A DNA stretch of 64,000 bases. Origin: Gelidibacter japonicus. Its GTDB lineage: Bacteria > Bacteroidota > Bacteroidia > Flavobacteriales > Flavobacteriaceae. The translations under genes and the position numbers were made by a program. The DNA lies in NCBI RefSeq assembly GCF_010725055.1, contig NZ_BJKB01000006.1, positions 1 through 64,000 on the forward strand, written 5' to 3'. The notes beneath the pieces are model-generated. The model had not been told where the DNA came from and ran no database searches. It saw only the letters and a list, made by a program, of their open reading frames with translations. Below are positions 36,688 through 57,160 of the stretch, piece by piece (position 1 is the stretch's first letter; each line of letters starts with the position of its first letter).

Positions 36688-37023
36688 GTGACAGGTAAGA
36701 AAATTTACAGGTTGACAAATATAGAATTGTACGATGCCATTACTAACGGCTCTGACCAGTTTTCAGTTGAGGAGTTGAATCTGGAGCTTGATTCCAGAAG
36801 GCTGACCTTGCAACAACTTGTGAAGATTGAAGCCGATTATCGCACGTATAAGGCTATTCAGCAAAAACGTATTGATCAACCTTTATCCCCTCAGGAATAT
36901 CTGATATGTTTTGTTTTTCCATTTTTCACTCCAAGACCGAGATGGCGTGATGACCACTTGTCACTATCTGAATCTGAACGTTATAAAAAGTATGGTTTAG
37001 CAAAAAACTGGAACAATCAGTAA
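36688..37023 (+). CDS. Conserved-looking small protein (111 aa), last gene of the topo IV operon
   Basis: 111 residues from a GTG at 36688, 18 bases after parC. Soluble and charged at the N-terminus (KIYRLTNIELYDAITNGSDQ). One short hydrophobic patch (YLICFVFPFFTPRPRWRDD, about 79-97) could be a membrane-touching loop. The C-terminus is SESERYKKYGLAKNW. Not recognised. Its position suggests co-transcription with parE and parC; there is a terminator right after it. Confidence 0.75.
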   Translation: MTGKKIYRLTNIELYDAITNGSDQFSVEELNLELDSRRLTLQQLVKIEADYRTYKAIQQKRIDQPLSPQEYLICFVFPFFTPRPRWRDDHLSLSESERYKKYGLAKNWNNQ

Positions 37024-37024
37024 A

Positions 37025-37057
37025 AGCCAAACGGCTGGGAATGCTGTTTTGGTTTTT
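37025..37057 (+). terminator. Terminator of the topoisomerase IV operon
   Basis: CCAAACGGC pairs, with wobble and one bulge, with GCTGTTTTGG around a 7-nt loop, followed by a T run. It begins just after the stop of the 111-residue gene. Confidence 0.7.
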
Positions 37058-37182
37058 ATTGATAACTGTATTTTCCCTAATGTATTCTTTCTTCAACAAT
37101 TAATTTTTATACCCCGATCCATCTGCTTAGAAAAGGTTTATAGAATGATATCAATCCGTTTCTATCTCTTAAATGTTTGTAA

Positions 37183-37299
37183 TTATTTCTTTTGATTTGA
37201 CAACTCGATCACGTCATCTTCTGTTACTTTTTGTAAACTTGACTCTCCTACCGAGAACGGGTATTGTTTTTCTTTATTTTGCCAACGGTTTTTTTTCAT
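37183..37299 (-). CDS. Possible micro-protein (38 aa)
   Basis: A 38-codon ORF on the minus strand encodes a basic start (MKKNRWQNKEKQYPF), a middle (SVGESSLQKV) and an acidic then basic end (TEDDVIELSNQKK). The amino-acid composition is protein-like (Trp, Pro, Gly, mixed charge), unlike the surrounding low-complexity AT-rich DNA. No homologue is known to me and no strong ribosome binding site is visible. Confidence 0.4.
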   Translation of the reverse strand: MKKNRWQNKEKQYPFSVGESSLQKVTEDDVIELSNQKK

Positions 37300-37988
37300 C
37301 TGCACAGTTAAAAACGGTCGAAGATATTTAAAAATCATAAATCATTAGCGTGCTGGTCGTGATTCGGAATTACATATTTATTGTATGTAGAAAAACAGTC
37401 TTTCATCAATCAATATTGAGTTCTATTTTTTGGTTACGAATCCTAACTACCTCCTAAAAGATACTTTGAAAAGGATTAGGTGGATTATTTTTGAATTAAA
37501 ACAAATTCCTTATATTTGAACTCTCCTAAGTTTTAGCAAAGTTAAATTACAACCAGTGGTTAATAATGCTGCAACGTAATTAATAGTATTTCAAGAGTAA
37601 AAGCATTTACCTTAGTGAATGTATGTAAGATACGTTGTGATTATTTTTCACTTCGCATTAAAATTATTTGTTGAATATCAATGTGTTCACTAATGACTTT
37701 ACAGCTTCATTGCTTAAGTCAATGAGGTTGTGCCATAAAGTATTTGTTTGTGTGTATAGAGATGTCTTGGATAGTAAAGAAGCAGTCCAAGGAGCAGTCT
37801 TTTTTAAATATTTATCAATAAATCACGAACTAAATTTTGTAGCTTTGATACTTTGAACATTATAATTTTGACATTTTTACAGAATTGCTTTTTTCAAATT
37901 CTTTTACGATTGTTTTAGACTAGGTGATAGCAATTTTGTTACAGTTTTTTTTTGGTTTATTTAATTTAAAAGACCAACAATTGTAAAG

Positions 37989-38043
37989 ATCTGATTAAGG
38001 AGTGTAATCAGATTAATTTAACCTTCTGGAAGTACAAGGGTTA
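37989..38043 (+). promoter_or_regulatory. Two-hairpin leader upstream of the carrier-protein cluster
   Basis: The first hairpin is a perfect 9-bp stem, ATCTGATTA with TAATCAGAT (37989-38013), loop 7 nt. A second follows after 5 bases: TAACCTT with AAGGGTTA, one G bulge, 10-nt loop (38019-38043). Neither has a T-run terminator tail. They lie about 70-125 bases before the first gene, so they may act as a leader or protein-binding site. Confidence 0.4.
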
Positions 38044-38114
38044 GACCATCATCAAATCAAAATGTATAATTAATTTAAAGTTATAAACCCGCTAATCCTA
38101 ACAAACTAGAAAAA

Positions 38115-38711
38115 ATGAATCCATTCGAAATTGGCTATTATCACGATGAAGAATTGAAGACCTTTGGTTTTAGATCTCTTGGAAAGAATGTTAAAATTTC
38201 TAAAAACTGTAACATCGTAGGACTTTCAAATATTAGTATTGGTAACAATGTCATTATAGATTCGTTTTGCTGTATCATTGCTAGTGGTAAGGATGCATGG
38301 CTAAAATTGGGTTCTCATGTCCATATTGGTGGGTATTGTCATATTTTAGCTAATGGAGGTGTTGAAATCAAAGATTTTAGCGGCTTATCGCAAGGGGTGA
38401 AACTTTATAGCAAGAGTGACGATTATTCAGGAAAATCCTTGACCAATTCAACAATTCCAGAAAAATATAAAAACATACAAAAAGGAAAGATCACTTTAAA
38501 TGAACATGTGATAATTGGAGCTAACAGTATCATCCTTCCCAATGTTACCATAGATACTGGGGTTTCCGTAGGAGCACTCTCCCTCGTGGCTACCAATCTG
38601 GAATCTTGGAATATATATTTCGGAAATCCATTGAAGAGGCTTGGGAAAAAATCCGAAGGTCTATTGCAAAAGAAAATGGAATTTCTTAAAGAATGGGAAG
38701 ACAAAAAATAA
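38115..38711 (+). CDS. Hexapeptide-repeat acyltransferase
   Basis: Left-handed beta-helix transferase of 198 residues, similar to sugar O-/N-acetyltransferases (galactoside, WbbJ or FdtC-like). Hexapeptide repeats run from about residue 20 (LGKNVKISKNCNIVG) to about 165 (VIIGANSIILPNVTID), with a loop around the likely catalytic region HIGGYCHILANGG. The C-terminus (GKKSEGLLQKKMEFLKEWED) is helical. It would move an acyl group from CoA or from the ACP encoded next to a sugar or amine. It is first in a plus-strand cluster; 195 bases separate it from the ACP gene. Confidence 0.88.
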   Translation: MNPFEIGYYHDEELKTFGFRSLGKNVKISKNCNIVGLSNISIGNNVIIDSFCCIIASGKDAWLKLGSHVHIGGYCHILANGGVEIKDFSGLSQGVKLYSKSDDYSGKSLTNSTIPEKYKNIQKGKITLNEHVIIGANSIILPNVTIDTGVSVGALSLVATNLESWNIYFGNPLKRLGKKSEGLLQKKMEFLKEWEDKK

Positions 38712-38906
38712 CTATGCAAAAAATCTCGTTTATTCCATCTAAATTCTGGCCATCAGCATAATACAAAAGTCAGTTAAACTATTATATCTGTCCGTTGACT
38801 AATTTAAGGTGACAGTTTAATACGACTATACTATTTTGCCTTAGTATTTAATTTCCATATAACTATACTGTCTTATTAACCATATTAACCACTGTAATTT
38901 ATTATT

Positions 38907-39161
38907 ATGAAAACACAAGTTGAAACTGAAAATAAAAATAAAATAAAGAATTATATTATCAGCGCAACGCTGTCTGATACCAAGGCTATTAATGATGACA
39001 CTTTAATTTTTGAAACAGGACTTTTGGATTCAATGGGATTATTATTCCTTGTTGAATATTTAAATGAAGAATTTAATATTGAAGTGAAAGATGATGAGCT
39101 ATTACCAGAGAATTTCCAATCGGTTAATAGTATTTTAAAATTCATTGAAGGCAAACAGTAA
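38907..39161 (+). CDS. Acyl/peptidyl carrier protein
   Basis: 84-residue carrier protein. The phosphopantetheine attachment Ser42 is in the motif LLDSMGLLFLVEYL, preceded by an acidic helix I and followed by FNIEVKDDELLPENF. It resembles stand-alone ACPs of D-alanyl-carrier and O-antigen/exopolysaccharide clusters more than fatty acid synthase ACP, because the DSL motif is DSM. It is 26 bases before the AsnB-type gene. The AMP-ligase three genes on is the natural loading enzyme. Confidence 0.9.
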   Translation: MKTQVETENKNKIKNYIISATLSDTKAINDDTLIFETGLLDSMGLLFLVEYLNEEFNIEVKDDELLPENFQSVNSILKFIEGKQ

Positions 39162-39187
39162 TTTTTAATTAAGAACCATTAAATTAT

Positions 39188-41173
39188 ATGTGTGGTATCG
39201 CGGGGTTTTATAATTACCAAACTACTAAGCAAGATCAGTCAACAACTACTATTCTTCGTCGTATGCTTACTCGTATCAAGCATAGAGGCCCGGATCAGAG
39301 TGGTATTTACTTGAACAATTCCGTTGGACTTGGAAGTGCCAGATTAAGTATTGTCGATTTAAATAATGGCACCATGCCAATGTCTAACTCTGATGACTCT
39401 TTATGGATTGTATTTAACGGCGAAATATTTAATCACATTGAACTAAGAAAAGAACTTGAAGCCAAGCAACATAGTTTTAAAACCCATAGTGACACCGAAG
39501 TAATAGTCCATTTATATGAAGAATACGGTCCAAAATTTGTAGACAAGCTAAATGGTCAATTTGCTATTGCCATTTGGGACAATGTCAAGGAGGAATTGTT
39601 TTTGGCTCGTGATCGCGTAGGGATAAGGCCTCTATATTACACAGAAGTCGGAGAGACAATTGTGTTTGCCTCAGAGATCAAAAGCATGTTGGAATTTCCT
39701 GGTTTTAAACCTAAACTTTCAGCAAAGGCAATCTCTGAATATTTTACTTTTTGGACCTCTTTATCTCCTGCAACTGTATTTGAGGATGTTTTTGAGGTTC
39801 CTCCTGGAAATTATATGATCATCAACAAATATTCAAAAGACATTACCACTTATTGGGAATTGCCCTTATACAAGCCCAATGAGTATAAGTACACTAAAGT
39901 AGAAGAAGCGATAAAGGAATTTGAAACCATTTTTTCAGATGCCGTTGAACTTAGAATGAAAGCAGATGTACAAGTGGCAGCGTACCTAAGTGGAGGATTG
40001 GATTCTAGTGTGACCACTTCTTTTATTAAAAAGATTTCTCCTGATAGGTTACGAACATTTTCCATTGGTTTTACCGAAAAAGATTATGATGAATCGCACT
40101 ATCAAAATATAGCTGCCGATTATTTTAAAACTGAACATACAAGTATATCCTGTGGTCCAAATGATATTGCCGATAACTTCGGAAATATGGTTTGGCATTC
40201 AGAAGCTCCTTTACTGCGTACAGCTCCTATTCCTATGGGATTGTTGGCCAAAAGCGTACGGGACGAGAATATTAAGGTGGTAATTACGGGTGAGGGTGCA
40301 GACGAATTGTTAGGTGGTTATAATATTTTTAAGGAAACAAAAATTAGACGGTTTTGGGCGAAGGACCCAACTTCCAAATACCGCCCACTTTTGTTGAAGA
40401 AGTTATACCCTTATTTACCGCAAATGAAAAATGCCAACAGCAATGTTCTTAAAATGTTTTTTGGATATAAGCTGTTAGAAACCGGCTCACCTATCTATTC
40501 CCACTTGTTAAGATGGCACAATACTTCTAGAATTAATAATTATCTCACGAAAGAATACCGAAACGCCATTGGAGATTACGATCCTATAGTTGCTATTGAG
40601 CAAAAGTTTAACAATAAGCTTGAAGGCATAGATTCTTTGGCCAAAGCACAATGGATCGAAATAAACATATTTATGTCTGGTTACCTTTTATCGTCTCAGG
40701 GCGACCGAATGGGTATGGCAAACTCCATAGAGGGACGGTATCCGTTTTTGGACCATAGGGTTATAGAGTTTTGTATGAGTCTACATCCTGATTTAAAGCT
40801 CAAAGGTTTAAACGAAAAGTATCTTCTAAAAATTTTAATGAAAGACCGGCTGCCTGATGCCATCTTAAATAGATCCAAACAGGCATATAGAGCGCCAATA
40901 CGCAGTGCATTTGTTCCGGATGAATTGCCTCCATATCTTGAGAAGATGCTCTCAGAAGAAGCAATTACTCAAGCGGGGATATTTAATCCTAACCATGTGA
41001 AACAGTTGCTCCAAAAGATGAGGAGCAAAAACCAAGTATCTGAAATTGACAATATGGCCATTACTGCCATTTTATCTGTGCAGATATTGAACGACCTGTT
41101 TATAAACAGATCAATTCAGGAGCTAAATGACAATGAACTCGTTAATCTTGATAAAACCGTTATAGATTATTAA
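39188..41173 (+). CDS. AsnB-type glutamine-dependent amidotransferase
   Basis: Class II glutamine amidotransferase with an asparagine-synthetase domain, 661 residues. The N-terminal nucleophile is intact (MCGIAGF, Cys2), and the PP-loop SGGLDSS is at residues 268-274. In true asparagine synthetase B it amidates aspartate. Here it lies between an ACP and an NadE-like gene, so it more likely amidates or aminates a carrier-bound acid (inference). Such AsnB paralogues occur in exosortase/EPS and antibiotic clusters. C-terminal residues (about 560-661) are a helical tail. Gaps to neighbours are 26 and 19 bases. Confidence 0.9.
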   Translation: MCGIAGFYNYQTTKQDQSTTTILRRMLTRIKHRGPDQSGIYLNNSVGLGSARLSIVDLNNGTMPMSNSDDSLWIVFNGEIFNHIELRKELEAKQHSFKTHSDTEVIVHLYEEYGPKFVDKLNGQFAIAIWDNVKEELFLARDRVGIRPLYYTEVGETIVFASEIKSMLEFPGFKPKLSAKAISEYFTFWTSLSPATVFEDVFEVPPGNYMIINKYSKDITTYWELPLYKPNEYKYTKVEEAIKEFETIFSDAVELRMKADVQVAAYLSGGLDSSVTTSFIKKISPDRLRTFSIGFTEKDYDESHYQNIAADYFKTEHTSISCGPNDIADNFGNMVWHSEAPLLRTAPIPMGLLAKSVRDENIKVVITGEGADELLGGYNIFKETKIRRFWAKDPTSKYRPLLLKKLYPYLPQMKNANSNVLKMFFGYKLLETGSPIYSHLLRWHNTSRINNYLTKEYRNAIGDYDPIVAIEQKFNNKLEGIDSLAKAQWIEINIFMSGYLLSSQGDRMGMANSIEGRYPFLDHRVIEFCMSLHPDLKLKGLNEKYLLKILMKDRLPDAILNRSKQAYRAPIRSAFVPDELPPYLEKMLSEEAITQAGIFNPNHVKQLLQKMRSKNQVSEIDNMAITAILSVQILNDLFINRSIQELNDNELVNLDKTVIDY

Positions 41174-41192
41174 TCCTAAATAAAACAATTTT

Positions 41193-42158
41193 ATGAAACC
41201 ATTTTCAAAAGAGATATTGCACATAGAAAACATTGAGGAAGTTTGCGATACGATTGTTAACAAACTAAAAACAGATGTTGCTCAAAAGCTACAAAGAAGG
41301 GGAGCTGTAGTAGGAATCAGTGGAGGTATAGATTCATCTGTCTGCATGGCGTTATCTACCAAAGCATTTGGTCCTGAAAAAGTAACCGCAATTATGTTAC
41401 CAGAGCAAGATTCAAGTGATGACAGTAAAAACCTCGCCTTGAAATTAGCAAATAAGTTCAGTGTCAAGACTATAGAAGAAAACATTACAAAAGCTTTGGA
41501 TGGATTTGGTTGTTATAGAAGAAGAGATGAAGCCATTGCCAGGGTAATTCATAATTTTGATCCGAAAGTCGACAAGGCCAAAATTGAAATTAAGCAAGAT
41601 ATAAGCCAAAATATTCCGGGAATATTTTCGGTTACTGTTATAAAGCCTAATGGAGAGGTGATTAGCAAATTATTGCCCGTTAAGGAATATCTTCAAATTG
41701 TAGCATCAACCAACTTTAAACAACGCAGTAGAATGTCAATGTTGTACTACCATGCTGAAAGATTGCACTATGCAGTTATTGGAACGCCTAACAAACACGA
41801 AGTTGAGCAGGGCTTTTTCGTGAAACACGGTGATGGTGGTGCTGATGTCATGCCTATTGGACATCTCTACAAAACACAGGTCTATCAATTAGCAAGATAT
41901 TTGGGGGTTCCACAAGAAATAATCGACCGAACTCCGACAACGGACACCTATACAGCGGAACAAACGCAGGAGGATTTTTTCTTTCAGATGCCACATAAGG
42001 AAATGGACTTAATTTGGTATGGTTGGGAAAATAATTATAAGACTGATGAAGTTGGAAAGGTAATGGGTAAAACAGCTCAAGAAATAGAAAATATTTATAA
42101 GAGCTTCGAAAGAAAAAGAAATACTACTGAATATTTGAGAATGAGACCCATATTCTAA
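41193..42158 (+). CDS. NadE-like ammonia-dependent ATP pyrophosphatase
   Basis: 321-residue member of the NAD synthetase family. The PP-loop is GISGGIDSS (about 41-49) and the later NadE-type block FFVKHGDGGADVMPIGHLYK is present. The usual GTD-HAAE stretch reads GTPNKHE. An insert of about 50-60 residues (about 115-170) makes it longer than E. coli NadE (275). It may be a real NAD synthase, but its place inside the cluster next to AsnB suggests a changed acyl substrate (inference). Distances of 19 bases on both sides indicate one operon. Confidence 0.87.
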   Translation: MKPFSKEILHIENIEEVCDTIVNKLKTDVAQKLQRRGAVVGISGGIDSSVCMALSTKAFGPEKVTAIMLPEQDSSDDSKNLALKLANKFSVKTIEENITKALDGFGCYRRRDEAIARVIHNFDPKVDKAKIEIKQDISQNIPGIFSVTVIKPNGEVISKLLPVKEYLQIVASTNFKQRSRMSMLYYHAERLHYAVIGTPNKHEVEQGFFVKHGDGGADVMPIGHLYKTQVYQLARYLGVPQEIIDRTPTTDTYTAEQTQEDFFFQMPHKEMDLIWYGWENNYKTDEVGKVMGKTAQEIENIYKSFERKRNTTEYLRMRPIF

Positions 42159-42177
42159 AATAATAATTATATCGTTT

Positions 42178-43638
42178 ATGAATGTTTTTGATTATTTATT
42201 CGCCACGACTCAACATCTTGAAAAGGATTTTGTGTTGGGCCCAAAAGAAACAATTTCATTTAAAAAACTACATGAAGACAGTTTAAAAATTGCTTCTTAT
42301 TTAAAAGTAAATGTCGGCCAAAATCAAAATGTTGTTTTGATTAGTCCCAATTCGGTTTTTTTTATCACCGTTTATCTTGGAATACTTAAATCTGGAAATG
42401 TTTGTGTTCCTTTAAATTTCTCTATTGAACAGGATAACCTTAATTTTATCATAGAAGCAACAAACTGTAGAAATGTTTTTATGGCAGACACCCTACAATC
42501 AAAACAGCAGTTGAGCAATAAAGTAAACCTTATTGATGAAGATCATTTCAACGAAATCATCAATAAGCAGGAATTAGTTCGATTTGACCCGGATATAGAT
42601 AAAAGCAGTTTAGCAGAGATCGTGTACACCTCTGGTTCAACAGGCCTTCCAAAAGGGGTCATGATCAGTCATCAAAATATAATTGCCAATACGCAATCCA
42701 TAATAGAATATTTGAGTTTAACCTCCAAGGATATTATGCAGGTCGTTTTGCCCTTTTTTTATTGCTACGGCCTTTCCTTATTGCACACCCATTTAAGAGT
42801 TGGAGGCTCAATTGTGCTAAATAACAGTTTTATATTTATAGGATCTGTAATTAATGATTTAAAAAGGTATAGATGTACTGGGTTTGCAGGTGTCCCTAGC
42901 CATTATCAAATTTTGCTTAAAAAATCCCAAAGTTTCAAAACAACAGATTTTCCGGATTTAAGATATGTCACCCAGGCCGGGGGTAAATTACATGATGTAT
43001 TTATCGATGAATTTATCGATACCTTTCCTAAGATAGCCTTTTTTGTGATGTACGGACAAACAGAGGCCACGGCTCGTTTGTCATATTTACCACCACATAT
43101 GGTCAGTGTAAAGAAAGGTTCAATTGGTAAAGGTATTCCCGGCGTGTCTCTAAGAGTAGTCAATGAAAAAGGAGAAGAGGTGAGTATTGGAGAAGAAGGT
43201 GAATTAATGGCAAAAGGGGATAATATTATGATAGGCTACTATAATGAGCCAGAAGAGACTAGTAAAACCATTATAAACGGATGGTTGCATACTGGAGATA
43301 TTGCCGAATTTGATCAAGATGGCTATTTATACCTCAAGGCCAGAAAAAAGGAAATTATAAAAGTAGGTGGAAAACGAGTAAGTCCTAAAGAGATCGAGGA
43401 AGTGATCCTTTCCGTTCCTCAAGTTGTTGATTGTACTGTCACAGGAATCGATGATGACGTATTAGGGGAATCAATTTTAGCGACTATCGTCTTGGACAAT
43501 CCAAAAGATGAAGCCCAAATGAGGGAGGTGATATTGTCTAAATGTGCCGAAAAACTATCACTTTATAAGATACCGCAAAAAATTGTTTTTGAAAACAGCA
43601 TTTCCATGAGCCCCACGGGGAAAAAGATTAAGAAATAA
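42178..43638 (+). CDS. AMP-dependent acyl/aryl ligase
   Basis: ANL-superfamily adenylation enzyme of 486 residues. The AMP-binding core motif YTSGSTGLPKGVM is at about 150-162. A second motif is in VMYGQTEATARLSYLPP, the hinge Asp in GWLHTGDIAEFDQDGYLYL, and the catalytic Lys in SPTGKKIKK at the C-terminus. It would adenylate an acid and thioesterify it to CoA or to the nearby ACP. The length and lack of a fused carrier suggest a stand-alone ligase. It is last in the cluster, followed by a weak terminator. Confidence 0.92.
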   Translation: MNVFDYLFATTQHLEKDFVLGPKETISFKKLHEDSLKIASYLKVNVGQNQNVVLISPNSVFFITVYLGILKSGNVCVPLNFSIEQDNLNFIIEATNCRNVFMADTLQSKQQLSNKVNLIDEDHFNEIINKQELVRFDPDIDKSSLAEIVYTSGSTGLPKGVMISHQNIIANTQSIIEYLSLTSKDIMQVVLPFFYCYGLSLLHTHLRVGGSIVLNNSFIFIGSVINDLKRYRCTGFAGVPSHYQILLKKSQSFKTTDFPDLRYVTQAGGKLHDVFIDEFIDTFPKIAFFVMYGQTEATARLSYLPPHMVSVKKGSIGKGIPGVSLRVVNEKGEEVSIGEEGELMAKGDNIMIGYYNEPEETSKTIINGWLHTGDIAEFDQDGYLYLKARKKEIIKVGGKRVSPKEIEEVILSVPQVVDCTVTGIDDDVLGESILATIVLDNPKDEAQMREVILSKCAEKLSLYKIPQKIVFENSISMSPTGKKIKK

Positions 43639-43957
43639 AGAAAAAGAATGTCTTTTTCGTTTTCCATAAACCTGAATTCTTAAAATATGTGGATTATACT
43701 ATTTTGAATGAAACTTAAAATATCGGCACGTAGGCAACAAAAAAGTAGTTATTCTTCTGATAAATAAATTTACAATGGACCAATATTCAGGATTTCTTTG
43801 AAGAGTGGAGATTCTGTTTTGAACATTCCTTTTTTAAGAAGGAAGAATTTATTGTCCCCAATTATGTAAAAGATATCATTTAATTCCTAATCTGATTTGT
43901 GAAAAACACTTAGTGCAAATCAGAATTGGATTACTGCACAATAAACCATATAGTTTC
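43639..43957. other. Gene-free region after the ligase
   Basis: 319 bases without a supported ORF. The only structures seen are the weak terminator at 43640-43663 and an 8-bp inverted repeat at 43892-43923 (CTGATTTG with CAAATCAG, 16-nt loop). Confidence 0.55.
43640..43663 (+). terminator. Weak terminator after the carrier-protein cluster
   Basis: GAAAAAG and CTTTTTC form a 7-bp stem with a 5-nt loop, followed by GTTTT. It is AT-rich and weak, but sits directly beyond the ligase stop codon. Confidence 0.45.
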
Positions 43958-44344
43958 TTATTTAATTTTTGTAGCGGTACCTTGTTCGACATGCTTTTTT
44001 TGATTGCCAGGTTGTATGGCCAAACTATACTCAAAGGTGTAGGAGTCCTCAGAAGTTGTAAGAATTTTCATGTGAATCGCTTTCTCTTCACTCATATTTT
44101 TTGGATTGATATGCTTCATGATAAATTCGCAATCATTGATCCATCTTATAGAAGCGGTATCGATCTTGTTCTCATAGTAATCGATGTTGAGATCTTCAGT
44201 TCTCACAAATCGGCCTATCTTTTCGACACCATCCGTTGTGTACTTAAATTCAAATGTACCTGTCCTAAAATCTTTGCATTCACGAGCTTTATTGTAGCAG
44301 CTTGATAATAAGAGTAAGAAAATAAAAACTAATGGAAATTTCAT
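43958..44344 (-). CDS. Lipoprotein of unknown function
   Basis: 128-residue protein with a lipoprotein signal peptide, lipobox LLSSCYNK at about residues 12-19. The mature part contains the conserved-looking CKDFRTGTFEF, ASIRWINDCEFIMKH and IHMKILTTSEDSYTFEYS. Orthologues I recall are sometimes wrongly named DNA topoisomerase IV; nothing here supports that. It is probably a small outer-membrane or periplasm-facing protein. Confidence 0.83.
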   Translation of the reverse strand: MKFPLVFIFLLLLSSCYNKARECKDFRTGTFEFKYTTDGVEKIGRFVRTEDLNIDYYENKIDTASIRWINDCEFIMKHINPKNMSEEKAIHMKILTTSEDSYTFEYSLAIQPGNQKKHVEQGTATKIK

Positions 44345-44438
44345 GTTTTACAAATTTGGAGACAAAATTACTTAAAAGAAAGCTAATTTATATCTAAATA
44401 TTGTAAAATGACTCATCATATAAAGAAACGCAAAAGAA

Positions 44439-44813
44439 TCAATTTTTTATAAATTCCTTAAAAGTTCCATCTGTATAAAAAATAACAATTTTTTCAATGC
44501 TTTTGTCATTTGTTTCTGTAGGGGGAATCAAAGGTCGCTGCGGAATTTTAGGAACGTTGTTTTTTTCTGTAGTGAGTGTTATGGCCTTAGCTGGAAATTC
44601 ACCTTTGCCGTTTAAAAGCCAATACAGTTCAACTTCGGGATAGGAGGATAAAACTTTAAGGACAAAATCTAAACTAGGCTTGTTTCGACCCGATAGAATA
44701 TGTGAGATGCTTGAGCGCTGAACACCTATTGTATCGGCGAAAGAAGATGCCGAGTCCGTGTAGTAATCTATCACTTGTTGTAGCCGCATTGCGAAATCAT
44801 CACTGTTTATCAT
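44439..44813 (-). CDS. XRE-family helix-turn-helix regulator
   Basis: 124-residue transcription regulator. The helix-turn-helix is at about residues 18-60 (SSFADTIGVQRSSISHILSG, then the stabilising helix of KPSLDFVLKVLSSYPEVELY). A C-terminal low-complexity Pro/Thr-rich linker is followed by a short IEKIVIFYTDGTFKEF tail. It is divergent from the M14 peptidase gene across 303 bases that carry TTTACA-type palindromes near both starts, which fits autoregulation (inference). Confidence 0.88.
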   Translation of the reverse strand: MINSDDFAMRLQQVIDYYTDSASSFADTIGVQRSSISHILSGRNKPSLDFVLKVLSSYPEVELYWLLNGKGEFPAKAITLTTEKNNVPKIPQRPLIPPTETNDKSIEKIVIFYTDGTFKEFIKN

Positions 44814-49757: not shown

Positions 49758-50909
49758 TTATAAACCTATTTTGTCTAAAATGATGAACCCTAATTTGTTT
49801 ATGCGATAAAGATTTTTGTGAAGAACACTTCCGTTATGGTATTTAAATAGATTGATGAGATAATTAGAGTCCTTTACATAATGATACTTTGTGTTCGTGG
49901 AAATAAACGAACCCATTGCAGAACGTTTGATTCTTTTGTAATCATCCGCATTATTTTCAACGAGCTTTTTATCCTTAAACGACACAGTAGATGCTTTATA
50001 GCCAGCTTCGATAGATAAATTAACACTTAAATCATTATATCCTCCTCCGGGCCAACATAAGAAGTCAATCTTCTTGTTGAGCTTTTCTTCTAAGAGTGAC
50101 TTGCTTTCAAAGAGCTCATAGCGATATCTCTTTTCCATCTCCTCGTCCGTCTCGTAAGTTCCTGGAAAAGTAATAAGTTTCTTATTTAACTTTTCAATTA
50201 ACAAAGACTTGTCTCTCAGTTTCTCATTATTAGAATACAATTCAATAGCGTATTTAACTAAATTTTCATCCGGAAAATAGCGTCTTAATCCTAGTGCTCT
50301 TCCAAAATCAAATATGGGATTTCCAAAAGGGACAAATTGTTTTTGATTTTCTGTAGTATAGTAGGGTTTTCTATGAGGTTTATTAATCCAAGCCATCCAG
50401 TCGTAGTGTGGCTGACCGGTATAGATGTCTCTAATATTATTGGAATGGAAATAGAAATTATGGCTCATACTGTGTGATTGTATGTCGATGGTATTAGATG
50501 AATCCATTTTCTTCAATTCTGACCAATTAAGGAAACCTATCGGCGATAATTCTCCGACATTAATTTTATTATCCCATACATCTTCTAAGTTAAAACGAAT
50601 ATTTTCTGAATTATCAATAAATTCCGGATTCACAAAAATTGTCCCTTTCAATCTATACTTTTTTAGAATTGGGTATGCATAAACCCAATTATCTAAGTAG
50701 CCATCATCAAAAGTTAAAACAACTTTTCGAGTAGATTCTTTTGAGGGACTTCCTTGTTCGTTGTACCACTCATCAAGAAAAACTGTTTCATAATTCTCAT
50801 CTACTAAAAACTTGCAAAAACTTTCAAAATGATCTAAAGACACCGACAACCAATTTCTATACCATTCATTTTTCTCACATCCAACGCTATGAAACATTAA
50901 TACTGTCAT
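49758..50909 (-). CDS. Polysaccharide deacetylase family protein
   Basis: 383-residue NodB-homology protein (carbohydrate esterase 4 type). The catalytic Asp motif is in VLTFDDGYLDN (about residues 64-74), and the zinc motif H-x3-H reads SHSMSHN, so the metal site is present. A second conserved Trp-Pro-Gly region is CWPGGGYND near residue 290. No signal peptide is visible. It may deacetylate a cell-surface glycan made by the locus that follows. Its start faces the Wzc-like gene with a 66-base gap in the same direction. Confidence 0.9.
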   Translation of the reverse strand: MTVLMFHSVGCEKNEWYRNWLSVSLDHFESFCKFLVDENYETVFLDEWYNEQGSPSKESTRKVVLTFDDGYLDNWVYAYPILKKYRLKGTIFVNPEFIDNSENIRFNLEDVWDNKINVGELSPIGFLNWSELKKMDSSNTIDIQSHSMSHNFYFHSNNIRDIYTGQPHYDWMAWINKPHRKPYYTTENQKQFVPFGNPIFDFGRALGLRRYFPDENLVKYAIELYSNNEKLRDKSLLIEKLNKKLITFPGTYETDEEMEKRYRYELFESKSLLEEKLNKKIDFLCWPGGGYNDLSVNLSIEAGYKASTVSFKDKKLVENNADDYKRIKRSAMGSFISTNTKYHYVKDSNYLINLFKYHNGSVLHKNLYRINKLGFIILDKIGL

Positions 50910-50975
50910 TTAGATTTATTTAAAATTTTGAAAATGGTTTATTTAGGATAAATTTATATTGGAATTTCAGCTGAT

Positions 50976-53330
50976 TTACTTTCTAAATAGGCCTTTCTTC
51001 TGTTTTTGTGGGTTATTTCCATACCCATAGCCATATCCTTCACTTCCGGTTTTTACACCGTTTAGTAACAGGGTCATATTGGGTAACCTTTTTTTCTCAT
51101 ATAATGGTCTTGCAACATGTACTAATTGCCTTTTATCAATATTGTTTGCACTTACAACATAAATAAACATATCGGCATATTTGGAAATAAGCAATGTATC
51201 GCTAACAAGCCCTACAGCAGATGTATCCACGATTATATAATCATATATTTTATCAAAATATTCAAAAAGTTCACCCACTCTGTCACTCATTAATAGTTCT
51301 GATGGATTTGGTGGTAGTGTGCCAGAAGGAATGATGTCAATGAAAGGGTTTTCCTTATTGTGCACAACTATGTCTTGGGGTTTTATGGATTTATCTATAA
51401 TAAAATCTGATAAGCCTTTTTCAATTTTTTCGGATTTATTCAAATAAGCCATTATTTTTGGTATTCTCACGTCAGCTTCAATTAAAAGAACTGATTTCTC
51501 CGAGTATGAGATGGACATGGCAAGATTAGTGCTAGTGTGCGATTTTCCTTCCTGTGCAGTAGTAGAGGTTATAAATAATTTTTTAGAATACCCAGAATTA
51601 CCGGATAACATAAAATCTATATTAGAACGCAAAATTCTAAAAGCCTCAGCCTTGGGTGAATAGTCAATTTGTTTGACTATTTTATTTTTTTTGCTTGTTT
51701 TTGGGATATCACCAATGTACGGAATATCAAGGATTTTAATCAAATCTTCTTTATTGTGGATTTTATTATCCAATAAATTTAATAGATAAATAGAGCCTAT
51801 CGGCACTGCCAATCCAAATAATATAGCGCCAAGATAAGTTAACATTTTGTTTGGTGATACAGGAAGAAACGATGAATAGCCATGGTCAATAATTTTTGCT
51901 TTAGGAGAAAACATACCTAAACTAATTGCGGACTCCTCCCGCTGTTGCAAAAGATAGAGAAATAATGACTCTTTAATACCTTGTTGTCGCTCAATATCCC
52001 TAAATTGTCTTTCTCTTGTGGGAGCAGAGTATAATTGTCCACGAATTCTAGCTCCTTCCCTAGATAAACTGTTAAGTGTTAATTCATTCGTTTTTTTTAA
52101 GCTCTCAAGCGTATTTTCTAGATTATCTTTTAGAGCATTTATTTGATTATCTAAGTTTATGACCGTAGGGTTTATTTCGCTAGAGTTCTTTAAAATACTC
52201 TCTCGTTGTGCGACTAATTCATTATGGGTTCTTGTGACCTGTAAAATAGCTGGATCTTCAATAATATTTGCTGGAAGTAAATCTGAGCTTTTATGTTTTT
52301 CCTTAATTTCCTCCTTTAAATAATCAATTAACTGAATCGTATTTGTGGTTGAGTTAATCCTGTCTTCAGTTATTCTTTCGCTTTCTAAATATAAATTTGC
52401 TTGAGAACCCAGAGCGGTAAGCTTATTCTTTTTTTGAAGCTGTTCGGCTGTAAAATCTACTTCATTCAACTCCTTTGAAACTACTTGGAGACGATTATTG
52501 ATAAAATCAGAGGTAATTTCAATAACTGATTCTTTATCTGCAATAACATCATTGTTGTATTCGTTAATTAAATTGTTGAGAATATCAATAGCTCGTTCAG
52601 GAATATTGTCTTTCAATTCTAATTTTACAACACTCGAACCAGTTTCTGTTGAAACGGCAATTCTTTTTTGGTAATCATCAACTACTTTTCTTACAGGTAC
52701 TATAGATACCCTTAGATTGCTACCTATAATAGGTGCATATTTTCCAATATTTGGAACGATTATAACATCTCCAAATCCAGTTTTAATCTTATCACCAAAA
52801 TTATACGGGTCACCATGAGATTCATCTCTGTCAATTAACGATTTTCCATCATCTTTAAACATTAAGTATTTCGACGGAGAAATAATTTTAATAAAAAGGG
52901 TGGTATCTACGTTGTGTATAATAGAATCGTGTGCGAAAAAATTGAGTTTTAAAGGAGGATTGTTATAAATTTCAAGTTCTTTTATCTGACCTTGTGTATA
53001 ATATTTAATATTCAAATTTAAGTCTTTGACTACATTTTCGATCAACGTTCTTGATTGAATTACTTCAATTTCGTCAAGGATTTTATTTGACCCATTAGCG
53101 AACAATCCTTTACCCGTGATGTCTTCTAAACTTGGTAGTTTTTGAGACTGAGTATCATCCTGAATTTTAATTGTTGCGCTAGCGTTGTATTGATAAGTTT
53201 CGTATCTCAAATAAGAATAAGCCAAGGAAACCGCAATTACAAGACTTAATGATATTATCAACCAATGGGAGGTAATTAGTTCCAATTGTTGCTTTAATTC
53301 GTTATTAGCTGAACTATTTGTCTTTTTCAT
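50976..53330 (-). CDS. Wzc-like polysaccharide co-polymerase and tyrosine kinase
   Basis: 784-residue inner-membrane protein. N-terminal Wzz domain with helices at about 24-42 and near 510, separated by a large periplasmic coiled-coil region. The C-terminal BY-kinase domain has a Walker A TAQEGKSHTS near residue 590, a Walker A' motif LLIEADVRIPK and a Walker B motif YIIVDTSAVG. The C-terminus has a tyrosine-rich run (GYGYGYG) that would be autophosphorylated. It controls chain length and export with the Wza-like protein 13 bases upstream. Confidence 0.95.
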   Translation of the reverse strand: MKKTNSSANNELKQQLELITSHWLIISLSLVIAVSLAYSYLRYETYQYNASATIKIQDDTQSQKLPSLEDITGKGLFANGSNKILDEIEVIQSRTLIENVVKDLNLNIKYYTQGQIKELEIYNNPPLKLNFFAHDSIIHNVDTTLFIKIISPSKYLMFKDDGKSLIDRDESHGDPYNFGDKIKTGFGDVIIVPNIGKYAPIIGSNLRVSIVPVRKVVDDYQKRIAVSTETGSSVVKLELKDNIPERAIDILNNLINEYNNDVIADKESVIEITSDFINNRLQVVSKELNEVDFTAEQLQKKNKLTALGSQANLYLESERITEDRINSTTNTIQLIDYLKEEIKEKHKSSDLLPANIIEDPAILQVTRTHNELVAQRESILKNSSEINPTVINLDNQINALKDNLENTLESLKKTNELTLNSLSREGARIRGQLYSAPTRERQFRDIERQQGIKESLFLYLLQQREESAISLGMFSPKAKIIDHGYSSFLPVSPNKMLTYLGAILFGLAVPIGSIYLLNLLDNKIHNKEDLIKILDIPYIGDIPKTSKKNKIVKQIDYSPKAEAFRILRSNIDFMLSGNSGYSKKLFITSTTAQEGKSHTSTNLAMSISYSEKSVLLIEADVRIPKIMAYLNKSEKIEKGLSDFIIDKSIKPQDIVVHNKENPFIDIIPSGTLPPNPSELLMSDRVGELFEYFDKIYDYIIVDTSAVGLVSDTLLISKYADMFIYVVSANNIDKRQLVHVARPLYEKKRLPNMTLLLNGVKTGSEGYGYGYGNNPQKQKKGLFRK

Positions 53331-53343
53331 TTTTTTAACTAAA

Positions 53344-54117: not shown

Positions 54118-54152
54118 GTAAATAGTTTTAAAGATTTAGCTTAAAAATAGGA

Positions 54153-56039
54153 CTATTTTTTAATATCTAAAACTTCATACGTCGAGTTATTAGATATATA
54201 TTCAGGAATTAAAAGTTTTATCGAAGATACTATTTCCAAGGGTTGTGTTAGAGAACTCACAGCAGTTAATTTGTTTATTTGTTTTTCAACACTTTCGATA
54301 TCCACATATCGCGATTTTGCAATCATTATTTTTTCATGATAGGTTTTTGTGGTGTTTTCTCCATCTGCCAAAAGTTCTTCGTAAATCTTTTCCCCTGGCC
54401 TCAAACCAGTGATTTTAATGTCCACATCCTCTGGGTATCTTAAACCAGATAATATGATCATGTTTTTTGCTAGGTTGAAAATTTTAATCGGTTCTCCCAT
54501 ATCGAAAACAAAAATTTCACCTCCATTACCCATGGCTGCAGCCTCTAAAACAAGTTGACAGGCTTCAGGTATAGTCATAAAGTAGCGAGTGATATCCTTA
54601 TGGGTCACTGTTAGAGGCCCACCTTTTTCAATTTGTTTTTTAAATAATGGAATCACAGATCCATTTGATCCTAAGACATTACCAAATCTAGTGGTAATAA
54701 ATTTGGTATGTCCTTTTCCTTTAAGACAGGTCACATAAAGCTCGGCGATGCGTTTAGTCGCTCCCATAACATTTGTTGGGTTGACCGCTTTGTCGGTAGA
54801 GATCAATACAAATTTATCGACACCATGCTTAACAGCCATATCCGCTACGTTTTTAGTGCCTCCAATATTAACACTAACAGCTTCAAAAGGATTGTTTTCC
54901 ATTAATGGTACATGTTTATAAGCAGCAGCGTGGAAAATTACTTTTGGCTTATATTCATTAAGTATTTGATCTACTCTGGTTCTATTGCGAATATCGGCAA
55001 CTATAACCTCTATGTTTTCAAGCCCTTGTTGTCTAAACTCTTGCTGAAGATCATATAATGCCGACTCTGAATTGTCCAAAAGAATTAATTTTTTGTAATT
55101 GTATAAACTGACTTTTCGAGAGATTTCACTGCCTATGGATCCAGCAGCGCCTGTTATAAGAATAATCCTATTCTCATACTCTTCTGTTGGATTGATTATA
55201 GATATGGGATCTCGTCCAAGTAAGTCTTCAATGTTGACATGTTTAATTTGCCCAATACTCAAATCGCCATCGATCCAACTCTGTACAGGAGGGACGATTT
55301 TTACATGAAGTCCCAAATCAAATAAATAACCTGTGATTTGAAGTAACCGTGTTGGATCAATATTCTGAATCGAAACAATGACTTCTTCAACTTTATTTTT
55401 TAAAACAAATTCTGGAGTTACTTTGTCTAAACTATAGACAGTTAAAAGATTTATTTTCTTTCCAACTTTACTCTCATTGTCATCAATAAAGCCTATGACA
55501 ATATAACTGTTTTGAGGATCGTTACTGATGGCTTCGTAAGTTATCATTCCTGAATTACCGGCGCCATATATTAAGACTTTCTTAGTAACGCTAAAATCAT
55601 TGCTTAAAGCATTATAGAGTGACTTTATAAATAACTTAAAGCCAATAAGCAGCAATATGTTCAGCAATAAATGTATATAAATTATGGAGCCAGGAATATC
55701 ATATACATCACTATAACCGAATTTTCGACTGAAAAAGGTCGAAATAATCAAAATTGTGGCTAAAATATTGACGCCAATGATTATATTGATAATGTCTTTA
55801 TACCCTGTAAATCTTACGACCCCCTTATGTGATCTAACAGACAAAAAACTAATCAATGCGGCTATTAGCACAAAGGGAACTTGACGCATCATCAAGTTAA
55901 GATCGAATTCAATCTTAAAATTAAACCTAATAAAATATGCGAAAAATAAACTAACAATTACAATAAATAAATCCAATAGCAATACCAACCATTTGGAGGC
56001 ATACCTATGGGATATTTTATGTAAAAATTTATAAATCAT
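54153..56039 (-). CDS. Membrane-bound UDP-sugar 4,6-dehydratase (WbpM/PglF/FlaA1 type)
   Basis: 628-residue protein with four N-terminal membrane helices (about 15-125), a CoA-binding-like Rossmann domain, and a C-terminal short-chain dehydrogenase domain with TGAAGSIGSE at about 295-304. The catalytic block STDKAVNPTNVMGATKR has Met where soluble enzymes have Tyr, as in PglF and WbpM. It makes a UDP-4-keto-6-deoxy-sugar. The DegT aminotransferase that overlaps its start by 4 bases would then transaminate C4. Confidence 0.95.
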   Translation of the reverse strand: MIYKFLHKISHRYASKWLVLLLDLFIVIVSLFFAYFIRFNFKIEFDLNLMMRQVPFVLIAALISFLSVRSHKGVVRFTGYKDIINIIIGVNILATILIISTFFSRKFGYSDVYDIPGSIIYIHLLLNILLLIGFKLFIKSLYNALSNDFSVTKKVLIYGAGNSGMITYEAISNDPQNSYIVIGFIDDNESKVGKKINLLTVYSLDKVTPEFVLKNKVEEVIVSIQNIDPTRLLQITGYLFDLGLHVKIVPPVQSWIDGDLSIGQIKHVNIEDLLGRDPISIINPTEEYENRIILITGAAGSIGSEISRKVSLYNYKKLILLDNSESALYDLQQEFRQQGLENIEVIVADIRNRTRVDQILNEYKPKVIFHAAAYKHVPLMENNPFEAVSVNIGGTKNVADMAVKHGVDKFVLISTDKAVNPTNVMGATKRIAELYVTCLKGKGHTKFITTRFGNVLGSNGSVIPLFKKQIEKGGPLTVTHKDITRYFMTIPEACQLVLEAAAMGNGGEIFVFDMGEPIKIFNLAKNMIILSGLRYPEDVDIKITGLRPGEKIYEELLADGENTTKTYHEKIMIAKSRYVDIESVEKQINKLTAVSSLTQPLEIVSSIKLLIPEYISNNSTYEVLDIKK

Positions 56040-57160
56040 TTATTAAAATATGTGTTAATGGTTGTGACTACTCTATCGAGTTCAGCATCAGTTAAATTTG
56101 AACCACTTGGCAGACACAGACCTTTTTCAAATAACTCGTCCGAAACACCATTGAGATATCGTGGCGCGTTTTTAAAGACTGGCTGTTGGTGCATTGGTTT
56201 CCATAAGGGCCGGGATTCTATGTTCTCATTTTCTAAAGATAATCTTAAACCTTCTCTAATTGATTTAGATTTCAATAAAATGCAAGACAACCAGCGGTTT
56301 GAAAAACAACCTTCAGGCTCTTGTAAAAATACGATATTATCGTTGTTTTTAAAAACACTTACATAAAACTCATGGTTTGAACGCCGCTTTGCCACGTGGC
56401 TATCTAATACAGTCATTTGCCCACGACCGATTCCTGCAACAATATTGGACATTCTATAATTGTATCCAATTTGTGAATGCAAATAATGTGGCGCATTGTC
56501 TCGTGCCTGTGTAGCCAAGAAAACGGCCTTTTTTTTATTTTTTAAGGTTTTTGAGACTAATGCCCCTCCTCCTGAAGTGGTAATGATTTTATTTCCATTA
56601 AAAGATAAAATGGAAAAATCTCCAAACGTTCCACATTTTCGACCGTTATATTCGCTGCCTAAGGATTCTGCGCTATCTTCAATTACTGGAATTTCATATT
56701 TTAATGCCACTTGATTTATTTCATCAACTTTATAAGGCATACCGTATAAATGTACGGCAATGATAGCTTTGGGCTTAATACCTTTTGAAACTCTATCCTT
56801 GATTGCTATTTCAAGTTGCACAGGGCACATATTCCAAGTCTCTCTTTCACTATCCACAAAGATAGGAGTTGCCCCTTGGTAGACTATAGGATTAGCAGAA
56901 GCGGAAAAAGTTTTACTTTGACAAATAACTTCATCACCCTTTTCGACCCCTAACAATATAAGACTTAGATGTAAGGCGGAGGTTCCAGATGCCAACGCGG
57001 CTACATGACAATCTTCTTTGAGATAAGTTTGTAAATCAAATTCGAAGCCATTTACGTTTGGTCCAAGTGGCGCTACCCAATTAGAGTCAAATGCTTCTTG
57101 TATGTAAGGTAGCTCATTACCACTCATATGTGGTGATGACAGCCAAATTTTCGGTTTCAT
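56036..57160 (-). CDS. DegT/DnrJ/EryC1/StrS aminotransferase (PglE-like)
   Basis: PLP-dependent sugar aminotransferase, 374 residues. The PLP lysine is about residue 190 in FNGNKIITTSGGG. The N-terminus KIWLSSPHMSGNELPYIQEA and GYNYRMSNIVAGIGRGQM are typical of the PglE/LegC group. With the dehydratase it forms a 2-acetamido-4-amino-2,4,6-trideoxy-hexose. Its stop overlaps the dehydratase ATG by 4 bases. Upstream, a short minus-strand frame ends in its ATG. Confidence 0.95.
   Translation of the reverse strand: MKPKIWLSSPHMSGNELPYIQEAFDSNWVAPLGPNVNGFEFDLQTYLKEDCHVAALASGTSALHLSLILLGVEKGDEVICQSKTFSASANPIVYQGATPIFVDSERETWNMCPVQLEIAIKDRVSKGIKPKAIIAVHLYGMPYKVDEINQVALKYEIPVIEDSAESLGSEYNGRKCGTFGDFSILSFNGNKIITTSGGGALVSKTLKNKKKAVFLATQARDNAPHYLHSQIGYNYRMSNIVAGIGRGQMTVLDSHVAKRRSNHEFYVSVFKNNDNIVFLQEPEGCFSNRWLSCILLKSKSIREGLRLSLENENIESRPLWKPMHQQPVFKNAPRYLNGVSDELFEKGLCLPSGSNLTDAELDRVVTTINTYFNK

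What the first reader, a model, noticed from the sequence alone, without database searches (positions are those of the whole stretch)
38115..43638. Five-gene carrier-protein pathway: acyltransferase, ACP, AsnB, NadE-like, AMP-ligase
Seen: five collinear genes; the last four are separated by gaps of only 19-26 bases. They encode an ACP with an intact pantetheine Ser42, an AMP-ligase with intact core motifs, two ATP-PPase-type enzymes with intact PP-loops (AsnB also keeps Cys2), and a hexapeptide acyltransferase. Known: exosortase/EPS loci can carry an AsnB plus ligase plus ACP set. Inference: the ligase loads an acid onto the ACP, AsnB or the NadE-like enzyme converts a carboxylate to an amide, and the acyltransferase delivers the product to a sugar or amine. 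No exosortase, NRPS or PKS gene is nearby, and I recognise no characterised product. This is the best candidate for an undescribed pathway.
Basis: partly seen in the sequence, partly recalled or inferred. Interest (0 to 1): 0.72.

Follow-up and report, generated by a model that had tools for sequence, protein, structure and literature searches.

The report
Conserved carrier-protein cassette with repurposed NAD synthase
Five neighbouring genes, four of them kept together in many Bacteroidota, look like a pathway that loads a small acid on a carrier protein, turns an acid group into an amide with two separate enzymes, and hands the product to an amino sugar; the product is unknown.

Summary
The five genes are real, at the stated coordinates. 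Four (ACP, AsnB-like, NadE-like, AMP-ligase) form a conserved cassette: of 63 relatives of the NadE-like gene with enough flank, 61 have all three partners. In 100 genomes of the family, the same 4 carry NadE-like, ligase and AsnB at strict cut-offs. Around 20 housekeeping NadE genes none of the three partners occurs. All 25 cassette genomes checked also have a housekeeping NadE, so the NadE-like enzyme is a specialised paralog. The acyltransferase is a replaceable part: its closest solved relative by far is AntD, an N-acyltransferase; ten other loci have a weakly GNAT-like gene and no AntD-type one. Sixteen of 80 loci have an amino-acid-type ligase, and 14 of these carry a PrmC-family methyltransferase (0 of the other 64), a class that methylates carboxamide nitrogen. 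Best reading: an ACP-dependent pathway making an amidated acyl group that decorates an amino sugar, often for surface polysaccharide. The acid, the site of amidation and the acceptor are inferred. The open-access papers I searched gave no description of this gene set.

The parts
38115..38711 (+). Hexapeptide N-acyltransferase, AntD-like (198 aa); accessory, replaceable part
   Evidence: Pfam Hexapep; best PDB match 3vbi, E 6.9e-46, residues 7-193, next non-AntD chain E 4.2e-8; PDB titles name 3vbj, 3vbk, 3vbl, 3vbm, 3vbn and 3vbp as AntD, an N-acyltransferase (3vbi shares its sequence entry with 3vbj)
38907..39161 (+). Acyl/peptidyl carrier protein (84 aa), phosphopantetheine Ser42
   Evidence: Pfam PP-binding; closest solved sequences are peptidyl carrier proteins and the D-alanyl carrier protein; in 62 of 63 full-context loci
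39188..41173 (+). AsnB-family glutamine-dependent amidotransferase (661 aa), not the only AsnB of the genome
   Evidence: TIGR01536 508 bits; TIGR03108 429 bits, below its cut-off 817; 63 of 68 cassette AsnBs of 600 aa or more begin MCG after trimming, PP-loop kept; in 61 of 63 full-context loci; another AsnB on contig C15
41193..42158 (+). NadE-family ATP-PPase (321 aa), specialised paralog of NAD synthase without a glutaminase domain
   Evidence: NF002048 424 bits over cut-off 313; model pLDDT 91.2, best structural match NadE 1xng Z 28.8, rmsd 2.5, 246 aligned; segment with invariant C107 Y108 R110 R111 D112; separate housekeeping NadE in this genome (L103:2006-2794)
42178..43638 (+). AMP-forming acyl ligase (LIG1, 486 aa)
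   Evidence: Pfam AMP-binding and AMP-binding_C; top solved relatives oxalate-CoA ligase and 4-coumarate-CoA ligase; motif LPFFYCYGL with Cys where the second ligase type has Asp
54153..56039 (-). Candidate supplier of the acceptor: NDP-HexNAc 4,6-dehydratase-like protein of the polysaccharide locus
   Evidence: TIGR03589 PseB 213 bits, below its cut-off 408; link to the cassette is inference
56036..57160 (-). Candidate supplier of the acceptor: DegT/LegC-type sugar 4-aminotransferase
   Evidence: TIGR04181 LegC family 378 bits (cut-off 420), PseC 214 bits (cut-off 424); link to the cassette is inference

Best explanation
A dedicated pathway that makes an amidated acyl group on a carrier protein and transfers it to an amino sugar, in many lineages for surface polysaccharide. 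Step 1 (family-level support): the ligase adenylates a carboxylic acid that lacks a recognised alpha-amino group, probably a small di- or hydroxy-carboxylic acid, and loads it on the ACP at Ser42. Step 2 (chemistry supported by family, substrate inferred): the AsnB-like enzyme, with glutamine, and the NadE-like enzyme, with ammonia, each adenylate a carboxylate or amide oxygen and replace it with nitrogen; because both are kept together, they probably act one after the other on the same intermediate. Step 3 (supported for this locus by similarity to AntD): the hexapeptide enzyme moves the acyl group to the 4-amino group of an NDP-4-amino-4,6-dideoxy sugar. In 16 of 80 loci, most labelled Bacteroidales or relatives, an amino-acid-type ligase is present, in 14 of them with a PrmC-family enzyme that would N-methylate the new carboxamide; 6 of 80 loci have an MBOAT, of which the one scanned resembles DltB.
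For: Cassette conservation: 61 of 63 full-context loci; same 4 of 100 family genomes for NadE-like, ligase and AsnB; control neighbourhoods 0 of 20. Specialised paralog: 25 of 25 cassette genomes checked (24 isolates, one uncultured assembly; 25 of the 80 loci) keep a housekeeping NadE. HEX is a full-length AntD relative, E 6.9e-46; it keeps the Ser and Asp-Asp segment in which the AntD mutants named in the PDB titles probably lie (numbering offset is mine). Acyltransferase slot: AntD-type HEX in 13 and weakly GNAT-like c13 in 10 of 29 Flavobacteriia-type loci, never both, Fisher p = 4e-4. Amide chemistry: PrmC-family gene in 14 of 16 loci with the second ligase and in 0 of 64 others, p = 8e-14; 13 of 15 near-full-length copies keep NPPY and 9 of 9 such genomes checked have another, higher-scoring PrmC. 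Polysaccharide context: at least one marker in 28 of 54 cassette loci of 17 kb or more against 0 of 20 controls. Precedents: F. psychrophilum WfpG predicted to transfer an acyl group from the dedicated ACP WfpD to UDP-Qui2NAc4NH2 (PMC6519341, passages); malyl- and 2-hydroxyglutaryl-acylated amino sugars in marine bacteria including Flexibacter maritimus (PMC3210612, passages).
Against: In 19 of 25 Flavobacteriia-type loci of 17 kb or more no polysaccharide marker lies within reach, and in this window the polysaccharide genes start about 6 kb away behind unrelated genes; a non-sugar acceptor remains possible. One AntD entry is solved with an acyl-CoA, so use of an ACP donor is inferred. No substrate of any enzyme was determined. 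The HEX model is poor (pLDDT 69) and its best Foldseek match, to AntD, is weak (E 0.02); the case rests on sequence. Two of 15 near-full-length PrmC-family copies have APPY, and in L064 it is the only copy, so not every copy need be an active amide methylase. Mutual exclusion and ligase-PrmC pairing were noticed first and tested afterwards, and are not corrected for shared ancestry.
Confidence: 0.5

Rival explanations
1. The cassette makes a soluble or lipid-linked amidated metabolite (for example an osmolyte or a signal) and the acyltransferase acts on an amine that is not a sugar.
For: Stand-alone operons without sugar genes in nine Winogradskyella-type loci, between an aminopeptidase-like gene and recG (these two names read by eye from the sequences); 19 of 25 Flavobacteriia-type loci of 17 kb or more lack polysaccharide markers; the acyltransferase family differs between loci; AsnB also matches the N-acetylglutaminylglutamine amidotransferase model, 356 bits under its cut-off 570.
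Against: HEX is closest to AntD; 22 of 29 loci outside the Flavobacteriia-type group carry polysaccharide markers.
Confidence: 0.25
2. AsnB and the NadE-like enzyme act on the sugar, not on the ACP-bound acid: one or both turn an NDP-uronic acid into a uronamide (as WbpS does) or an N-acetyl into an acetamidino group, while ligase, ACP and acyltransferase add an ordinary acyl group.
For: WbpS (PGN_1234), an AsnB-family protein, is needed for glucuronamide in the P. gingivalis linking sugar (PMC7468200, passages); uronamides and acetamidino sugars occur with N-acylated amino sugars in marine polysaccharides (PMC3210612, passages); NadE substrates are dinucleotides with a carboxylate (recalled).
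Against: The cassette AsnB is not of the WbpS type: TIGR01536 508 over TIGR03108 429 bits, while the other AsnB of this genome's polysaccharide locus has the reverse order (434 and 504), and the segment motifs differ. A UDP-sugar dehydrogenase (one representative as query) is in only 7 of 54 loci.
Confidence: 0.2
3. The NadE-like gene is a second NAD synthase carried along for supply of NAD, and only the other genes form the pathway.
For: NCBI model NF002048 is named NAD(+) synthase and the protein passes it; the P-loop and 34 invariant positions are shared with the housekeeping enzyme; NadE fold by structure.
Against: 25 of 25 cassette genomes checked already have a housekeeping NadE; 0 of 20 housekeeping NadE genes have these neighbours; the paralog has a segment with invariant C107, Y108, R110, R111, D112 and in all 43 invariant positions that differ from, or are gaps in, the one housekeeping enzyme aligned.
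Confidence: 0.05

Closest known systems
Flavobacterium psychrophilum O-antigen wfpD (ACP) / wfpG (acyltransferase) pathway to UDP-Qui2NAc4NR
   Same: Dedicated ACP plus a PglD-homologous acyltransferase predicted to acylate a 4-amino sugar nucleotide, in a flavobacterium (PMC6519341, passages)
   Different: There the acyl group is thought to be built by ketoacyl-ACP synthases and a reductase; here an AMP-ligase is present, with two amide synthetases
AntD, N-acyltransferase from Bacillus cereus (3vbi-3vbp; anthrose pathway, recalled)
   Same: Near full-length sequence match of HEX, E 6.9e-46
   Different: An AntD entry is solved with a CoA thioester; no ACP, AsnB or NadE known to me in the anthrose operon (recalled)
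Wbp/Vim pathway with WbpS amidotransferase and VimA, P. gingivalis T9SS linking sugar
   Same: AsnB-family amidotransferase in surface-glycan synthesis; acetyltransferase/FemAB-like VimA proposed for aminoacyl transfer (PMC7468200, passages)
   Different: WbpS belongs to the eps_aminotran_1 type; 'acyl carrier' occurs 0 times in that paper's main text, and no ligase or NadE-like gene appears in the passages seen
XrtA/PEP-CTERM polysaccharide-associated amidotransferase and ligase (TIGR03108, TIGR03098)
   Same: AsnB and ligase match these models (429 and 301 bits; one second-type ligase 441 bits)
   Different: All below the models' cut-offs; no exosortase in the genome; a NadE-like gene is not part of that system as far as I know (recalled)
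Dlt system (DltA, DltC, DltB)
   Same: Stand-alone ligase plus carrier protein; one MBOAT of a related locus matches the DltB model (162 bits, cut-off 375)
   Different: No MBOAT in the window's cassette; AsnB and NadE-like are not part of Dlt (recalled)

Membership tests
AntD-type amino-sugar N-acyltransferase (HEX) | Near full-length similarity to AntD well above other hexapeptide enzymes | tested here: met
   E 6.9e-46 over residues 7-193; next non-AntD chain E 4.2e-8
AntD-type amino-sugar N-acyltransferase (HEX) | Residues Ser84 and Asp94 (named as mutants in the PDB titles) | tested here: inconclusive
   The segment aligns and S92, Q93, D103 are invariant in 15 HEX proteins, but the chain-to-title numbering offset is my inference
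AntD-type amino-sugar N-acyltransferase (HEX) | Acts on an NDP-4-amino-4,6-dideoxy sugar | not testable with these tools
   needs an assay
NAD synthase (NadE) | NadE fold with PP-loop SGGxDS | tested here: met
   model pLDDT 91.2; 1xng Z 28.8, rmsd 2.5 over 246 residues; SGGIDSS
NAD synthase (NadE) | Is the genome's only NAD synthase | tested here: not met
   A separate housekeeping NadE in this genome and in 25 of 25 cassette genomes checked
NAD synthase (NadE) | Same substrate-site residues as housekeeping NadE | tested here: inconclusive
   34 invariant positions shared and 43 different or gapped in an alignment with one housekeeping NadE; the deamido-NAD contacts were not mapped
Asparagine synthetase B | Glutaminase Cys2 and synthetase PP-loop | tested here: met
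   MCGIAG and SGGLDSS in the window protein; MCG start in 63 of 68 cassette AsnBs
Asparagine synthetase B | Segment TTIR of E. coli-type AsnB | tested here: not met
   Cassette has EAPLLRT--AP; the C15 AsnB of this genome keeps TTIRASTPM (role of TTIR in aspartate binding recalled)
XrtA/PEP-CTERM amidotransferase TIGR03108 | Score over curated cut-off | tested here: not met
   428.9 against 816.9 bits
XrtA/PEP-CTERM system | Exosortase in the genome | tested here: not met
   0 matches to PF09721 at E <= 0.001
Dlt system | Amino-acid-binding Asp in the ligase | tested here: not met
   LIG1 has Cys where the second ligase type, and by alignment the LgrA adenylation domains, have Asp; role of the Asp recalled
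Dlt system | MBOAT (DltB) next to ligase and carrier | tested here: not met
   none among the ORFs at 36688-44813; MBOAT cluster in 6 of 80 loci

The most novel reading that the evidence does not exclude
A NadE-family enzyme has left NAD metabolism and works with an AsnB-family enzyme as a pair of successive amide- or amidine-forming synthetases on one carrier-protein-bound acid, giving a surface-sugar decoration not yet described; in a mostly Bacteroidales variant a PrmC-family enzyme then N-methylates the new carboxamide, a small-molecule use of a translation-factor methyltransferase.
Probability: 0.35. Interest if true: 0.75.

Novelty: new variant of a known kind. Interest (0 to 1): 0.55.

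Why it matters
By family models the cassette would be labelled piecewise as asparagine synthase, NAD synthase, acyl-CoA ligase and ACP, and so can go unnoticed; the NadE-like gene's model is named NAD(+) synthase although all 25 cassette genomes checked have another. If the reading holds, it adds a repurposed NadE to the chemistry of bacterial surface glycans, predicts an amidated (in some lineages N-methylamidated) acyl amino sugar that polysaccharide chemists can look for, and gives a four-gene set that can be expressed and assayed directly.

Tried and rejected
Tried: Rfam on 36900-44500 at gathering thresholds (no match) and tRNA/tmRNA search of the window (none). Exosortase system membership was rejected. 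Housekeeping NAD synthesis was rejected as the role of the NadE-like gene. Canonical asparagine synthesis was considered unlikely. A Dlt-type reading for this window was rejected (no MBOAT; Cys at the Asp position), although parts of it fit a few related loci. The HEX model was too weak for structural argument. Substrate prediction for the ligase led nowhere beyond the missing Asp. The first PrmC comparison used wrong coordinates for the housekeeping proteins and was redone. One search was a useless alignment, (hexapeptide family in the own genome) gave 13 matches and was not used further, and loci L101 and L102 were fetched but not used. A promoter-like look at 37024-38114 gave motif matches without a background count, so nothing is claimed. 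Literature: 10 searches. Searches looked for the gene set as such and returned 0 papers; some searches were near variants, returning 9, 44 (15 listed), 0 and 2 papers. Four papers were opened, by 'find' passages only: PMC7468200, PMC4052302, PMC3210612, PMC6519341. The library holds open-licence papers only, so 'not in print' cannot be claimed beyond it.

Biases: the 80 loci are the best of 88 found with six peptide patterns from the window's own NadE-like protein, so distant relatives are under-sampled; NF002048 also rings in Methanosarcina acetivorans, which I did not examine. Two loci (L034, L043) come from one assembly, so 80 loci are not 80 genomes. Two of the 100 family genomes that carry the cassette (G038, G082) have contig lengths equal to those of L032 and L037, so those tests overlap. 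Seventeen of 80 loci had too little flank for the 63-locus count; loci under 17 kb (26 of 80) were dropped for the 54-locus count. E-value cut-offs were my choice. Grouping as 'Flavobacteriia-type' (29 loci) was by locus number and includes records labelled only 'bacterium', Bacteroidetes or Chlorobiota, while one record labelled Flavobacterium (L089) is outside it. Of ten c13 copies, L028 has it in the HEX position, eight lie just downstream of the ligase on the opposite strand, and the one in L045 lies about 5 kb beyond the ligase. FemAB-like c58 occurs in three loci: alone in L020, with HEX in L030, with c13 in L040, so it is not a clean replacement.


Full report
Observation. The window carries five intact collinear genes at 38115-43638 with gaps of 195, 26, 19 and 19 bases. 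The ACP Ser42, AsnB Cys2 and both PP-loops are intact.

Is the set more than chance? A scan of genome contigs with the NadE-like protein kept the best 80 of 88 loci, in records labelled as Bacteroidota groups, two labelled Chlorobiota and one 'bacterium'. By BLAST at E < 1e-4 the ligase is in 79 of 80, AsnB in 74 of 80 and the ACP in 69 of 80; many contigs are short. In the 63 with enough flank these are 63, 61 and 62, and 61 have all three (the exceptions are L072 and L098). All four genes lie on one strand in 68 of 68 loci that have them, in the compact order ACP-AsnB-NadE-ligase in 59 of 68. In 100 genomes of the window's family, the window's genome among them, NadE-like (E <= 1e-60), ligase (1e-100) and AsnB (1e-150) each hit exactly the same 4 genomes. 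As control I took 20 housekeeping NadE genes with about 10 kb on each side, from 20 genomes that carry the cassette: ACP, AsnB and ligase 0 of 20 each, against 54, 53 and 54 of 54 cassette loci of 17 kb or more.

The NadE-like enzyme is a specialised paralog. It passes the subfamily model NF002048 (424 bits, cut-off 313), which is rare in the family (4 of 100). This genome has a separate housekeeping NadE of 262 aa on contig C13, and so do 25 of 25 cassette genomes searched (24 isolates and one uncultured assembly), in open frames of 264-323 or 550-575 aa. The predicted structure is confident (pLDDT 91) and is a NadE fold (1xng Z 28.8, rmsd 2.5, 246 aligned). In 50 aligned members the P-loop and 34 invariant positions agree with the housekeeping enzyme, while a segment with invariant C107, Y108, R110, R111 and D112 falls in a gap of that enzyme. 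ATP use is thus likely kept and the acceptor site changed (inference). 3fiu, an NMN synthetase by its title, suggests that this fold can change acceptor.

AsnB. It keeps glutaminase and synthetase motifs but not the segment TTIR that this genome's other AsnB (contig C15) keeps (its role in aspartate binding is recalled). It is also not of the WbpS/eps_aminotran_1 type: it scores 508 bits to TIGR01536 and 429 to TIGR03108 (cut-off 817), whereas the AsnB of this genome's polysaccharide locus, about 4 kb past the window, scores 434 and 504. Its closest solved sequence is a hydroxyamidotransferase (7ylz).

Ligase. The window's type (LIG1) has LPF[FY]YC[YF]GL in 64 of 65 copies counted, the window's included; a second type (LIG2), in 16 of 80 loci, has LP[LM][AG]FDYGL. 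The Asp of LIG2 aligns with the FD of gramicidin-synthase adenylation domains, the residue that holds the alpha-amino group (recalled). LIG1 has Cys there and its closest solved relatives are oxalate-CoA and 4-coumarate-CoA ligases. So LIG1 probably does not load an ordinary alpha-amino acid, while LIG2 probably does. Two loci (L034, L054) have both.

A clue to the product. A PrmC-family methyltransferase occurs in 14 of the 16 LIG2 loci and in none of the other 64. One example scores 206 bits to the release-factor glutamine-N5 methyltransferase model, cut-off 199. Nine of nine genomes checked hold another, higher-scoring PrmC elsewhere; the cassette copies are on average 23% identical to those and 53% among themselves (15 and 9 sequences). 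NPPY is kept in 13 of 15 near-full-length copies; L064 and the second copy of L081 have APPY, and a 16th copy is a fragment. PrmC methylates a carboxamide nitrogen (established for the family). A carboxamide made by AsnB and NadE-like is what such an enzyme would need; this is inference, but it ties the two observations together. Six of 80 loci have an MBOAT, of which the one scanned resembles DltB (162 bits, cut-off 375).

The acyltransferase. HEX matches AntD along residues 7-193 (E 6.9e-46; next other protein 4.2e-8). The PDB titles name these entries AntD, an N-acyltransferase from Bacillus cereus; one is in complex with dTDP and 3-hydroxybutyryl-CoA, others, with titles cut, with 'dTDP-4-amino-4...'. 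Its own model is poor and adds little. HEX of this family is in 15 of 80 loci. Among 29 Flavobacteriia-type loci, 13 have HEX, 10 have the c13 protein, none both, 6 neither (p = 4e-4); in L028 c13 sits exactly in the HEX place. The GNAT assignment of c13 is weak (8 of 10 members touch Acetyltransf_1, best E 1.8e-4; three weak PDB hits). FemAB-type proteins occur in L020, L030 and L040, in the last two beside HEX or c13. So an acyl-transfer slot probably exists and is filled by more than one family.

Context. At least one polysaccharide marker is found in 28 of 54 cassette loci and 0 of 20 controls, but unevenly: 22 of 29 outside the Flavobacteriia-type group and 6 of 25 inside it. In the window the polysaccharide locus starts about 6 kb downstream and includes a PseB-like dehydratase next to a LegC/PseC-like aminotransferase, which would give an NDP-4-amino-4,6-dideoxy sugar, the sort of acceptor AntD uses. 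This link is inference.

Mechanism proposed. Ligase loads an acid on ACP; AsnB and NadE-like install one or two nitrogens (amide, or amide then amidine); the acyltransferase places the acyl group on an amino sugar. The nearest described logic I saw is WfpD/WfpG in F. psychrophilum, itself a prediction (PMC6519341, passages), and dicarboxylic hydroxy acids on amino sugars are known from marine bacteria, including 2-hydroxyglutarate in Flexibacter maritimus (PMC4052302 and PMC3210612, passages). Uronamide formation by the AsnB-family WbpS is the main rival use of an amidotransferase (PMC7468200, passages). What is shown: the genes, their conservation, their paralog status, their folds or families. 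What is inferred: every substrate, the order of steps, and the acceptor.

Novelty. Each part belongs to a known family; the set with two different amide synthetases, one a NadE paralog, did not turn up in the papers searched (listings only, apart from the four papers named). I rate it a new variant of a known kind.

Noticed in passing
window 49758-64000, continuing into G000:C6 to about 71.6 kb (L100:1-7597): A polysaccharide locus: deacetylase-like protein, Wzc, Wza, dehydratase, aminotransferase, ATP-grasp plus HAD pair, flippase, glycosyltransferases, a sugar transferase and a second AsnB of the eps_aminotran_1 type at L100:3915-5816 (several names read by eye).
   Followed up: partly
window 37024-38114: About 1.1 kb without an ORF of 70 aa or more upstream of the operon; no Rfam match; promoter-like motifs present but not tested against background.
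   Followed up: partly
L081:13035-15313: Two PrmC-family genes flank a SnoaL-like gene beside the second ligase; the second copy has APPY instead of NPPY.
   Followed up: partly
L078:14867-15832, L064:16656-18254 and 13 other loci: A recurrent protein, mostly about 280 aa (cluster c9, with FLHHSTG), near the cassette; the two examples scanned have no NCBIfam match and the L078 one no Pfam match; sometimes a 532-aa form.
   Followed up: partly
L030:12594-14409: A second ligase (26% identical) and a second ACP lie directly downstream of the cassette in Robiginitalea marina.
   Followed up: no
NCBIfam NF002048: The model is named NAD(+) synthase, but all 25 cassette genomes checked have another NadE; annotations of this subfamily may mislead. 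It also rings in Methanosarcina acetivorans.
   Followed up: partly
L034 and L043: One Flavobacteriia assembly (DAOUPQ) carries two copies of the cassette on different contigs, one of them with the second ligase and PrmC-family genes.
   Followed up: no
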